Positions 1-52,262 of a DNA stretch of 54,189 nucleotides are shown one piece after another. The position numbers were made by a program, and so were the translations under genes. Origin of the DNA: Candidatus Alkanophaga volatiphilum (GTDB taxonomy: Archaea > Halobacteriota > Syntropharchaeia > Alkanophagales > B39-G2); the NCBI GenBank assembly GCA_029259545.1, contig JAPHEE010000009.1, positions 2,575 through 56,763 on the forward strand, read 5' to 3'. Positions within the stretch are counted from its first letter, which is position 1. Every line of letters starts with the position of its first letter. The notes under the pieces were generated by a model. It saw only the letters and a program-made list of their open reading frames with translations, did no database searches and was not told the DNA's origin.

Positions 1-277
1 TAAAGGATAAAAGTTACGAGGAGTTTAAAAATAATCGTATGCTTCAGGATGCTGTTATAAGGGAGATTGAGATAATTGGTGAGGCCGCTAAAAATCTTTC
101 AAAGGAGTTCAGGAGCAAACATCCAGATATACCATGGAGACAAATAGCTGGCATGAGGGATAAGCTGATACATATGGATATTTTGGAGTGGATTTGGACG
201 CTGTATGGGATACAGCAACGAGAGATATCCCATCATTGAAAAGAGAACTACAGGAAATCATAAAAAGGAGGAGATAA
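1..277 (+). pseudogene. HepT-like (DUF86/HEPN) toxin, 5' end outside window, frameshifted
   Basis: Frame upstream of the track ORF reads KDKSYEEFKNNRMLQDAVIREIEIIGEAAKNLSKEFRSKHPDIPWRQIAGMRDKLIH; after ~position 174 the family-typical tail GYFGVDLDAVWDTATRDIPSLKRELQEIIKRRR* continues in another frame. Confidence 0.8.
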
Positions 278-423
278 AATGAGCGGGGTTCGGGACTCTC
301 GCAATCCTTCGGATTGCTCGGTGCTGACGCACTCGGACAACATGGGATATGTGACTTGTTCACGCCTTTTGCATAAGGCTGCTGCCCTTCCCGTCGCCGC
401 TTTTCCTCACCCGCGAAGCAAGA

Positions 424-2164: not shown

Positions 2165-3232
2165 TCATATAGCTCCGGCTCTTTCTAACTCTTTTATGCG
2201 TTCCTCGTCGTAAAGCAGTGAAGATAATACCTCTTTCGTGTGCTCGCCGAGCTTTGGAACCTTCCCCACATCAGGACGCAAACCTGCGAATTTTAGTGGG
2301 ATCCCTTGCGCTCTCACACCCCTTTGCGGGCTGGAAGCCTCTAGGGGAGGAAAGCCCCCGAAACATTTTTATTCCTTCTAACTTTTATCGATGATGCCCA
2401 ACGGCATGTCCGTTGGGCGGATGGGTCCCTGACCGGCCGAGCTGATGCGTCTCCGCAAGCCGCCCGTCCCGTGTCGGAACCTCGCCCCGGCGGGAGGCAG
2501 GTCAGCTTCCCTAACCTTGGGTAGCGGCGACGTGCGGGCGCATTTGAAGACGTCAGCGACCGTGTTTATGGAAGCTGCGGGCACGCCGTGCCGCAGAGCG
2601 TCTCCACGACTTCGTCTCGCGTTCGCGCGCCCGCGTCCACTCCTCGATGATGGGTTTCAAGAGGCTCTCAAAGTTGCGATATCGATCTTCAAGCGTCTGG
2701 ACCTTGGATGATTTACTAAGTCCTCCCCCTATCGCTCGGCAAAAACGCTCCCAGATGGTCTGAGATGCCGCTGTTATGATCACTAAGCCGTCTTTCGACT
2801 CAAAGGCGTATGGTGCGATCAAAGGAACTCCAATGCCGCTAGGTCCCGGAACTTCGCCCGTCCACTCATAGATTGCAATTTCTCTGTACATGAGGTAGAC
2901 CATGCTGTCGTACATCGCGACGGCGACGTGCTGCCCCTCGCCTGTGATATTGCGGAAGCGGGGCGCCGCGAGTATCGCAGACGCCATGAGCGTCGCCGGA
3001 AATATATCGCCGATGCTGGGTCCAACCTTCACGGGCAGCCCGCCCCTTGGGACCCGTGATGCGGGGAGCACGTCCTTATGCCCGAAACCCGTGATCGTCG
3101 CGTATATGATTCTCGGGTTCACCTGCCTCAGCATTAATGACCTCAGCACCAAGATTTACGAGGAGCATCGTGCAAAACGGCCCTGCGAGGAACCCTGTAG
3201 GGTCTAATACTCTTAACCTTCAAGTGTTTCAT
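2165..3232 (-). pseudogene. CaiB/BaiF family III CoA-transferase pseudogene
   Basis: N-terminal GFLAGPFCTMLLVNLGAEVI, central NPRIIYATITGFG/GEGQHVAVAMYDSMVYLM, and C-terminal GIPLKFAGLRPDVGKVPKLGEHTKEVLSSLLYDEERIKELERAGAI* lie in different frames with an internal deletion and an inserted ~200-bp element. Confidence 0.85.
2311..2507 (+). repeat. dispersed ~200-bp element, copy A (inserted in CoA-transferase pseudogene)
   Basis: Reverse complement closely matches 20758-20957; e.g. CCGTCCCGTGTCGGAACCTCGCCCCGGCGGGAGGCAGGTCAGCT shared. Confidence 0.85.
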
Positions 3233-3264
3233 AGTACTACTCTAACAACCATAGTAACAGAAAA

Positions 3265-3339
3265 TAGCGGGGGGTGGATTCGAACCACCGATCTCCGGGT
3301 TATGAGCCCGGCGGGATTTCCTGACTACCCCACCCCGCT
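3265..3339 (-). tRNA. tRNA-Met (CAT), initiator type
   Basis: AGCGGGGTGGGGTAG...GGGCTCATAACCC...GGTTCGAATCC...CCCCGCT cloverleaf; archaeal initiator features. Confidence 0.9.
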
Positions 3340-3390
3340 GTTTATACTTATGGAAAAGTTCATATAAAACCTTTACGTCATTCTCTGTGA

Positions 3391-9710: not shown

Positions 9711-9859
9711 AACATTCAGAGTTAAATTAATACCTCTACCAGCCCCCCACCTTCCTAATTCATCCCCGCCTCAGGACGAGCATTCTTAGCGACCGAAGGT
9801 AAAAATTTATCGGTACCGCAAAAATATTAAAGGAACAAAGCTTAATTTCCTAATTAAAC

Positions 9860-20587: not shown

Positions 20588-20757
20588 GAGGATAGGGTTA
20601 GAAGTCCGGTTTTTAAGCTTTACCATTGGAATGCGATAACAGGGTCAGGAATTGATGAAAGCAAAAAGCAACTAACGCCTCAGCAGCTCCTTTAAGAGCG
20701 AGTAGAGCAAGTAAGGGAGAGAAAAGACGAACGCACCGAACATGTAGCAGCCGAGAC

Positions 20758-20957
20758 AGCTGACCTGCCTCCCGCCGGGGCGAGGTTCCGACACGGGACG
20801 GGCAGCTTGCGGAGACCGCATACGGCTCGGTCAGGGAGCCGTCCTCAGTCAGCATTTAGCTGACCGAATCATCGAAAAGTTAGAAGGAAGGAATAAAATG
20901 TTTCGGAAAGCGGGCTTTCCTCCCCTTAGAGGCTTCCAGCCCGCAGGAGGTGTGAGA
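20758..20957 (-). repeat. dispersed ~200-bp element, copy B
   Basis: Inverted copy of 2311-2507. Confidence 0.85.
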
Positions 20958-38652: not shown

Positions 38653-38940
38653 AGCAAAAGGCGTAGGGCGTACGGCATGCTCGTTTCGACCCGATCAGCA
38701 CAGCACGGCACGGACGCCTCTCCTCACTCTCCTCACATCGAACGAGTCCGAGCGGATCGGTTCGGTTACGGTTACGGCTACGGGCAACTCCTCCTAGGGT
38801 TCTTACTGTCCTCGTCGTCGGGTTGGGAGCTCGGACCTTTACCTCCAGTCGCTAAGAAGGCTCGTCCTGAGGGCGGGATGATTAGGGGGTTGGAGGCAGT
38901 TAATTTTTATCCGAAGATGATGTGAGTTCGGAACGAGGCC

Positions 38941-39057
38941 GTGGGTACATCCTGCGGTCAGGGGCTGCTGTGACCCAGCCCGACGGGAGCGGTCCGTCCT
39001 GCACACTCCCCAACCTCCCCCGGTGGACGCCCCTTGCTAAGCGAGGGCGGAGGTCAC
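38941..39057 (-). repeat. GC-rich dispersed repeat, copy C2
   Basis: Reverse complement aligns to 9596-9710 over ~115 bp including a shared 23-mer CTCCGCCCTCGCTTAGCAAGGGG. Confidence 0.75.
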
Positions 39058-45501: not shown

Positions 45502-46407
45502 GTGGCGGCGCGAAAGGTCGCTGTTAGCGACCGTACAGTAAAAATGCGTATCAGCTCGTTTTGGAAACTTACAAGGCTCGAGCACGGTATAATGTACGGG
45601 GTGGGCGTTTTAGTAGGTATGTTAGTGGCCGGCGGCTTGAATCTCACTTTTTGGCAGAAAGCAGTTTTTGGCTTCTCGACGGCACTGCTCATCGAGGCTG
45701 GGACCTTTGCGCTGAACGACTATTGTGACTACGAGAGCGACGTGGCGAACGAGCGTTACGACCGCCCGCTCGTGAGCGGCGAGCTTTCGCCGAATGTCGC
45801 CCTTTACACCGCGGCTGTTGCGACGACGCTCGGCGTGCTGGCGGCGGCGCCGCTCGGCGCCCTGTGCTTCAGAGTGGCGGCGGCGCTCGCAGCGCTCGGC
45901 ATCGCCTACGACATTTGGCTCAAAAAGTTGGGCGTCGTCGGGAACTTTTATATAGGCTTCACGATGGCGGTTCCCTTCCTCTTCGGAGCGCTCATCGTCG
46001 GCGTCGTTAATGAGGCGGTGCTCACGCTCTTCGCCATCTCGCTGCTCGCAGGCGTCGGCAGGGAGATCATGAAGGGCATCATGGACGTCAGGGGCGACGC
46101 CCTCAGGGGCGTGCGGACGGTCGCCCTAAGGTACGGCGAGACCGCCGCCAGAAGGTCGGCGGCGGCGCTCTTCCTCGCAGCGACGGCACTCAGCCCGCTG
46201 CCGTTCTTCGCTGCGGAGCCGTACCGCATGAACCTTGCGTACCTCGTGCCGCTGATATTTGCGGACGCCGCCTTCGTCCACGCTTCACTAGTGCTGCTTA
46301 GGGGCGAAAGTGTGCAGAAGCTCCGCCGAGAAACGCTGCTCGCCACGCTCCTCGGACTTTTAGCGTTCCTCTCCGGGGCGGTTGTGAGCTTAAAGCTTAG
46401 TTTTTAG
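45502..46407 (+). CDS. UbiA family prenyltransferase
   Basis: ALNDYCDYESDVANERYDRPLVSGELSP, GREIMKGIMDVRGDALRGVRTVALRYGE. Confidence 0.93.
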   Translation: MAARKVAVSDRTVKMRISSFWKLTRLEHGIMYGVGVLVGMLVAGGLNLTFWQKAVFGFSTALLIEAGTFALNDYCDYESDVANERYDRPLVSGELSPNVALYTAAVATTLGVLAAAPLGALCFRVAAALAALGIAYDIWLKKLGVVGNFYIGFTMAVPFLFGALIVGVVNEAVLTLFAISLLAGVGREIMKGIMDVRGDALRGVRTVALRYGETAARRSAAALFLAATALSPLPFFAAEPYRMNLAYLVPLIFADAAFVHASLVLLRGESVQKLRRETLLATLLGLLAFLSGAVVSLKLSF

Positions 46408-46518
46408 GCTAGCCTTCTGCGGCGGCGCCGTCGCCGTCGTGCACCCGTTCCGTGGCGGGAGGGTTGCCGCTCGGAGATTTAGGGCGCCCTAGTTTCTAGT
46501 TTCTGCAGCGGTGGTAAT

Positions 46519-51961: not shown

Positions 51962-52105
51962 CCGTCATTGCGGACGCCGCCTTCGTCCACGCCCCGCTCG
52001 CACTGGTCAGGGGCGGGAGCGTGCGGAGGCTCCGCCAAAAACGCTGATAGCCGCGCTCCTCCTTCCTTTCCGGGGCGGTTGCAAGCCTGAGGCTTGGCTT
52101 TTAGG
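51962..52105 (+). pseudogene. duplicated 3' fragment of the UbiA prenyltransferase gene
   Basis: GCGGACGCCGCCTTCGTCCACGC...GTGCGGAGGCTCCGCC...TCCGGGGCGGTTG...TTTTTAGGC-like tail mirrors 46259-46410. Confidence 0.8.
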
Positions 52106-52262
52106 CGGGGAGGCGAGCTGGCAAATTTCAAAAAGGTAAGAGTTTATCACGGTTGCGAGCGGCTAAGAAGCTCCAAGCTCGTGACCATGCCTTCTCTGAC
52201 GGCTCTTGAGAGCGTCCTGAATGCTAACGTTGCTCAGCTCGCCTGTTGCCCAGAAGAAGGGA

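What the first reader, a model, noticed from the sequence alone, without database searches (positions are those of the whole stretch)
2311..2507. ~200-bp non-coding element in two inverted copies (2.3 kb and 20.8 kb)
The two copies match along their length with scattered substitutions and a few indels (e.g. GCGGGCTGGAAGCCTCT...GGGGAGGAAAGCCC and CCGTCCCGTGTCGGAACCTCGCCCCGGCGGGAGGCAGGTCAGCT). No ORF inside; several hairpins, one with GCGGGCT/AGCCCGC arms. Copy A sits inside a pseudogene, so it probably moves or moved. No terminal inverted repeats, compatible with a non-autonomous IS200/IS605-like element, but family is not established. The GAGGAAAGCCC core and hairpins make a transcribed RNA conceivable.
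Basis: partly seen in the sequence, partly recalled or inferred. Interest (0 to 1): 0.65.

Follow-up and report, generated by a model that had tools for sequence, protein, structure and literature searches.

The report
Mobile guide-RNA mini-element in archaea
The 190-base repeat is a small jumping DNA of an archaeon, cut down from a larger element that carried an RNA-guided DNA-cutting enzyme (TnpB); it has lost the enzyme gene but kept its two ends, a promoter-like box and the guide-RNA gene, so each copy could still make a guide against the site where it landed.

Summary
Copy A is 2318-2505 (+) and copy B 20760-20951 (-). The genome holds 18 full copies, one cut by an assembly gap and one half-deleted intermediate, with sharp shared ends TCAC|A... 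and ...GGTCAG|. Orthologous sites in a same-genus genome without the element are empty and keep YCAC at 4 of 5 sites: insertion 3' of TCAC without target duplication, as in IS200/IS605. Full-length relatives with the same ends carry tnpB (Thermococcus, another MAG, and the window's own order), so the small element is a core-deletion derivative. Its right half is the Rfam RNA HgcC, which in complete tnpA-tnpB elements ends exactly at the right end: HgcC is very probably the TnpB guide RNA (omega/reRNA). A six-base pseudoknot between an inner CTGACC and the terminal GGTCAG matches the ISDra2 omegaRNA, and a TATA-like box lies in front. In the parents tnpB runs antisense to, and divergent from, this RNA, unlike the textbook arrangement. 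Unproven: transcription here, the TnpA that moves it, and any TnpB that loads it in this genome (no close intact homologue found).

The parts
2314..2317 (+). Copy A target tetranucleotide TCAC (predicted TAM), not part of the element
   Evidence: TCAC (rarely CCAC) precedes nearly every copy; kept as YCAC at 4 of 5 orthologous empty sites
2318..2505 (+). Copy A, complete non-autonomous element (188 bp)
   Evidence: sharp ends shared by 18 full genomic copies
2328..2357 (+). Copy A left-end hairpin (GGGCT...AGCCC, inner GGCT/AGCC)
   Evidence: alignment and folds; same hairpin in full-length tnpB elements L065, L167, L227, L275
2358..2375 (+). Promoter-like BRE/TATA box (CCGAAACATTTTTATTCC) for the RNA strand
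   Evidence: present in nearly all copies; Thermococcus copies have GCAAAGTTTATATG/AAG at the same place; inferred function
2391..2505 (+). Predicted TnpB guide-RNA scaffold (HgcC/omegaRNA), 3' end = element right end; start approximate
   Evidence: cmscan HgcC 2420-2518, E 0.0022 (22.8 bits, below gathering); sister copy C28 scores 53.5 bits, above gathering 50
2396..2418 (+). Scaffold hairpin GCCCAACGG-CATGT-CCGTTGGGC
   Evidence: other copies keep a hairpin here with quite different, mutually complementary arms
2429..2434 (+). CTGACC, 5' strand of the predicted pseudoknot
   Evidence: complementary to 2500-2505; partner bases differ together between element families
2500..2505 (+). GGTCAG, 3' strand of the pseudoknot and right-end cleavage site TCAG
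   Evidence: same RE terminus in a five-copy Thermococcus IS605
2506..2521 (+). Predicted 16-nt guide of copy A (flanking host DNA)
   Evidence: inference from omegaRNA organisation (PMC10097598)
20952..20955 (-). Copy B target TCAC
20760..20951 (-). Copy B, complete non-autonomous element (192 bp)
20744..20759 (-). Predicted 16-nt guide of copy B (flanking host DNA)
   Evidence: inference

Best explanation
The repeat is a TnpB-less IS200/IS605-group element (PATE/MITE-like). It arose by internal deletion from a tnpB element whose left end is TCAC|(A)CYCCTTGCGGGCTGGAAGCC... and whose right end is an omegaRNA (reRNA, Rfam HgcC) ending in GGTCAG. Shown: multicopy, precise ends, insertion after TCAC without duplication, full-length and half-deleted tnpB relatives with matching ends, HgcC at the right end of complete tnpA-tnpB elements. 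Inferred: a Y1 transposase (TnpA) supplied in trans moved it as single strands; its TATA-like box transcribes a roughly 115-nt scaffold running into the flank, giving a guide RNA that a TnpB could use, with TAM TCAC, to cut the re-emptied site and favour retention. In the parents tnpB lies head-to-head with this RNA, on the other strand.
For: 18 full copies in the genome with identical end motifs and unrelated flanks. Empty sites in same-genus G001, which has no copy: junction continuous at C13, C3, C15:37858 and, from the right flank into YCAC, C28:4074. Full-length parents: L065, L167, L227, L275 with intact 388-aa tnpB frame; L274 has RNA and antisense tnpB, its LE was not matched by the profile. 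Half-deleted intermediate in the own genome, C5 (L114:1320-1640), with the tnpB remnant DLNAARNIA, 59% identical to the L167 TnpB C-terminus. HgcC = TnpB RNA: 6 own-genome HgcC hits sit just downstream of tnpB on the same strand; 8 of the Thermococcus HgcC loci examined likewise; five identical tnpA-tnpB elements in one Thermococcus genome end exactly at HgcC ...GGAGGAGGTCAG|. Pseudoknot: inner NTGACC and terminal GGTCAN pair G-C 28 times, C-G 20 times, as ISDra2 -5..-3 with -103..-105 (PMC10097598). HgcC RNAs are expressed in T. kodakarensis, and P. furiosus HgcC is antisense to a transposase gene (PMC4247193).
Against: No TnpA with these ends was found; two Thermococcus genomes with the family have no Y1 transposase. 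No intact tnpB closer than 34% to the parental one in this 88%-complete genome, so the RNA may be an orphan. Copy A scores only 22.8 bits to HgcC; its RNA half folds no better than shuffles (z -0.7). The pseudoknot change separates a few families, so it is few independent events. At C58 the G001 empty site reads TCAA. No transcript data for this genome.
Confidence: 0.85

Rival explanations
1. Pure DNA parasite: an IS605-type PATE whose right-end structure is kept only because TnpA recognises it as folded single-stranded DNA; the HgcC likeness is ancestry without present RNA function.
For: No close TnpB in the genome; both ends fold as DNA (z -2.1); PATEs without known RNA role exist (PMC3119063); copies C15 and C58 keep the right end but have a damaged pseudoknot.
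Against: A TATA-like box is kept between LE and scaffold in nearly all copies, which TnpA would not need; scaffold hairpin arms differ between copies but stay complementary; HgcC RNAs are expressed elsewhere, some from loci without transposase (PMC4247193).
Confidence: 0.4
2. The parental TnpB uses an RNA on its own strand, ending at the left-end hairpin, and the HgcC-strand RNA is something else (for example an antisense regulator).
For: In the parents tnpB ends inside the LE hairpin, resembling the usual tnpB 3' overlap with the RE.
Against: No upstream complement to the terminal AGGTGA/GGGTGA in tnpB sense in four parents; TCAC stays beside its flank in both filled and empty sites, so such a guide would mark the donor itself; HgcC-strand RNA is the right-end RNA of sense-oriented tnpB elements.
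Confidence: 0.12
3. Ordinary segmental duplication or a terminal-inverted-repeat MITE of another transposon family.
For: Ends share a short imperfect TSACCTCC likeness in L065.
Against: 18 full copies with unrelated flanks, no target duplication, no real inverted repeats, tnpB parents with the same ends.
Confidence: 0.01

Closest known systems
PATEs of Haloquadratum (PMC3119063)
   Same: short, non-coding, near-terminal palindromes, no inverted repeats, no target duplication, derived from IS605/IS1341-type elements by core deletion
   Different: here the deletion leaves a nearly whole HgcC/omegaRNA unit with a promoter-like box; parents have tnpB antisense to it
HgcC RNA family (Rfam RF00062)
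   Same: right half of the element; best sister copy 53.5 bits, above the gathering score
   Different: curated as an RNA of unknown role; here tied to tnpB right ends. Copy A itself is below the gathering score
ISDra2 omegaRNA/reRNA of TnpB (PMC10097598, PMC8612924)
   Same: scaffold of roughly 115 nt ending at the right end, 3'-terminal pseudoknot, guide taken from the flank
   Different: ISDra2 RNA overlaps the 3' end of tnpB in sense; here the parental tnpB is divergent, and the mini-element has no tnpB
Stand-alone omegaRNA loci of IscB (known to me from the OMEGA literature, not checked here)
   Same: guide-RNA loci outnumber nuclease genes
   Different: TnpB rather than IscB, archaeal, mobile ends defined here

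Membership tests
IS200/IS605 group (non-autonomous) | insertion 3' of a fixed short target, no target duplication | tested here: met
   TCAC before nearly all copies; empty sites keep YCAC at 4 of 5
IS200/IS605 group (non-autonomous) | subterminal hairpins, no terminal inverted repeats | tested here: met
   only a short imperfect likeness between the ends
IS200/IS605 group (non-autonomous) | tnpB-bearing relatives with the same ends | tested here: met
   L065, L167, L227, L275
IS200/IS605 group (non-autonomous) | Y1 TnpA acting on these ends | tested here: inconclusive
   TnpA genes exist in the genome, but those inspected have other ends; none in G040/G042
PATE | too short to code, palindromes near termini, derived by core deletion | tested here: met
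TnpB omegaRNA (reRNA) | RNA 3' scaffold end coincides with the transposon right end | tested here: met
   five-copy Thermococcus IS605; same terminus in this family
TnpB omegaRNA (reRNA) | pseudoknot between scaffold terminus and upstream segment | tested here: met
   complementarity and family-level covariation; pairing not tested physically
TnpB omegaRNA (reRNA) | overlaps the tnpB 3' end in sense | tested here: not met
   parents have tnpB antisense
TnpB omegaRNA (reRNA) | expressed, TnpB-bound, guides cleavage | not testable with these tools
   only literature on HgcC expression in other species (PMC4247193)
HgcC (RF00062) | score at or above gathering (50 bits) | tested here: inconclusive
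   C28 copy 53.5 bits; copy A 22.8; several other copies about 25-44
TIR-type MITE | terminal inverted repeats and target duplication | tested here: not met

The most novel reading that the evidence does not exclude
A family of TnpB elements in which the nuclease gene and its guide RNA are transcribed divergently from opposite strands, spawning swarms of enzyme-less mobile guide-RNA genes with their own promoters; Rfam's orphan HgcC RNA is this guide RNA.
Probability: 0.5. Interest if true: 0.75.

Novelty: new variant of a known kind. Interest (0 to 1): 0.6.

Why it matters
It gives a function to a two-decade-old orphan RNA family (HgcC): no paper in the held library was found to name both HgcC and TnpB. 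It suggests that archaeal IS605 mini-elements are mobile guide-RNA genes, so TnpB may serve many guides in trans. The antisense arrangement in the parents asks whether TnpB can use an RNA made from the opposite strand, whereas ISDra2 TnpB uses RNA overlapping its own 3' end.

Tried and rejected
The 17-mer scan of genome contigs gave 52 stretches, most of them chance; only L058, L078 and L065 were real by profile. RNAalifold on the copies found little covariation because the hairpin classes misalign. RNA energy of copy A's right half is unremarkable (z -0.7). Empty sites for copies A and B themselves were not found: no G001 match for the joined flanks, and the small frame split by copy B has no homologue in 40 relatives. 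Joined proteins gave no Pfam hit. L012's apparent compensatory change (GGTCGG with CCGACC) was not counted, because CCGACC occurs next to CTGACC in many copies. Considered and rejected: segmental duplication, TIR MITE, and the LE hairpin as the functional RNA.

Full report
Observation. The repeat is real. Copy A is 2318-2505 (+), preceded by TCAC 2314-2317; copy B is 20760-20951 (-), preceded by TCAC 20952-20955. Searching the window's own genome (archaeal by gene content; 1.85 Mb, 89 contigs, 88% complete) gave 19 places; an RNA model built from the copies finds 18 full copies plus one intermediate on C5, and a further copy on C44 is interrupted by an N gap. Copies differ by roughly 5-30%, yet nearly all start at TCAC|A(C)CYCCTTGCGGGCTGGAAGCC and end at GGAGGCAGGTCAG| with unrelated flanks.

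Insertion. G001, of the same genus, has no copy. Joining the flanks of each copy at TCAC and searching G001 gave orthologous empty sites. The alignment runs through the junction at C13 (G001: CCAC), C3 (CCAC) and C15:37858 (TCAC), and from the right flank into TCAC at C28:4074; the site of the C58 copy reads TCAA. The last base is C in 4 of 5 and G in none, so TCAC belongs to the target and TCAG to the element. There is no duplication. This is the IS200/IS605 mode and fixes the strand: left end at 2318, right end at 2505. Caveat: the two candidate joints (TCAC or TCAG) differ by one base, so the orientation rests on that base at five sites.

Parents. A pattern scan of public genomes with profile confirmation found two solo copies in Thermococcus sp. 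AUK126 and a full-length element, L065: the same LE, a tnpB frame (PF07282 E 2.4e-23) and the same RE, 1.3 kb apart. Further full-length cases: L167 in the same Thermococcus, L227 in another Thermococcus (88.6% TnpB identity), and L275 in the window's own order (intact frame). L274, also in the window's order, has the RNA and an antisense tnpB (73.6% identical to L065 TnpB), but its LE was not matched by the profile. In all of them tnpB runs from near the right end toward the left end, antisense to the conserved right-end RNA; in L065, L167, L227 and L275 it ends inside or beside the LE hairpin. The own genome keeps a half-deleted intermediate on C5, with RE, only the tnpB C-terminus (DLNAARNIA) and the GTGTGA end. 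The small element is therefore a core-deletion derivative.

The RNA. The right half matches Rfam HgcC: copy A 22.8 bits (E 0.0022 in 311 bases), the C28 sister 53.5 bits, above gathering. HgcC sits at tnpB right ends: in this genome six hits lie directly after tnpB on the same strand (compare), among them full-length L149; eight of the Thermococcus loci examined show the same; and five identical tnpA-tnpB elements in one Thermococcus genome run from TTAC|TTTTTC to exactly the HgcC end GGAGGAGGTCAG|. HgcC is therefore very probably the omegaRNA/reRNA. The ISDra2 omegaRNA has a pseudoknot of -5..-3 with -103..-105 (PMC10097598). Here the terminal GGTCAG pairs with CTGACC at about -77 (window 2429-2434); a second element family has GTGACC with GGTCAC. 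Over all right ends held, the outer pair is G-C 28 times and C-G 20 times, with few exceptions. This is a difference between a few families, not 48 independent events. A hairpin just upstream keeps complementary arms with different sequences in different copies; two copies (L011, L014) look like reciprocal chimeras with broken hairpins.

Promoter. Between LE and RNA nearly all copies keep CCGAAACATTTTTATTC; Thermococcus copies have GCAAAGTTTATATG/AAG, a BRE/TATA-like box at the distance expected for an RNA starting near GATGAT. In L167, L227 and L275 A/T-rich TATA-like sequence lies between the divergent tnpB and RNA. HgcC RNAs are expressed in T. kodakarensis, two of them outside transposase genes, and P. 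furiosus HgcC is antisense to a transposase gene (PMC4247193). Expression in the present organism is not shown.

Mechanism (inferred). TnpA in trans excises and inserts single strands at TCAC. The box transcribes scaffold plus flank; a TnpB charged with it would cut the restored TCAC-flank site after excision but not the occupied site, where TCAG precedes the flank. Weak points: no TnpA with these ends was found and no close intact TnpB in this genome (best intact homologue 34%). The elements may now be pure DNA passengers; I put present RNA function here near even odds.

Placement. It works like, and tests as, a non-autonomous IS200/IS605 element of PATE type (PMC3119063), with the added feature of a nearly complete promoter-plus-omegaRNA unit and parents with divergent tnpB. 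I found no paper in the held library naming both HgcC and TnpB; most subscription journals are not covered.

Noticed in passing
window 9760-9803 and 38838-39057; L149:418-1599; L223: A second, larger family of mini-elements: LE TTAC|(AAAAY/CTTCA)GTCGCTAAGA..., RE ...GGTGGAAGCC...GGGGGAGGAGGTCAC, also with an HgcC-like right end; full-length L149 carries sense tnpB, and a TnpA gene on C6 has the same left end. About 25-30 distinct copies or fragments are held.
   Followed up: partly
L114:1320-1640 (G000 C5): Half-deleted intermediate of the window's element family, with only the tnpB C-terminus left.
   Followed up: yes
L011:3096-3288 and L014:3012-3191: Reciprocal chimeras of two hairpin classes with the break in the loop; recombination between copies or an assembly chimera.
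   Followed up: no
G000 C44 (L022, about 3000-3340): A copy interrupted by an N gap; it could hide a full-length element.
   Followed up: no
L019, L016: Some copies sit directly at the right end of other IS605-type elements (...GGGAGGAGGTCAC|, ...GGGAGGCGTCAC|): elements nested end to end.
   Followed up: partly
G000: Over 30 tnpB hits but only a handful of Y1 tnpA: an unusually IS605-rich genome.
   Followed up: no
window 1-280: C-terminal part of a frame that reads like a HEPN/DUF86 (HepT-like) protein at the window edge, judged by eye only.
   Followed up: no
window 46259-46409 and 51968-52106: Diverged direct repeats 5.7 kb apart (80-82% identity), apparently ends of duplicated genes.
   Followed up: no
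L065 (JAGGSE010000238.1): The record is titled 'bacterium' but the contig carries an element otherwise seen here only in archaea; possibly a mislabelled archaeal MAG or contig.
   Followed up: no
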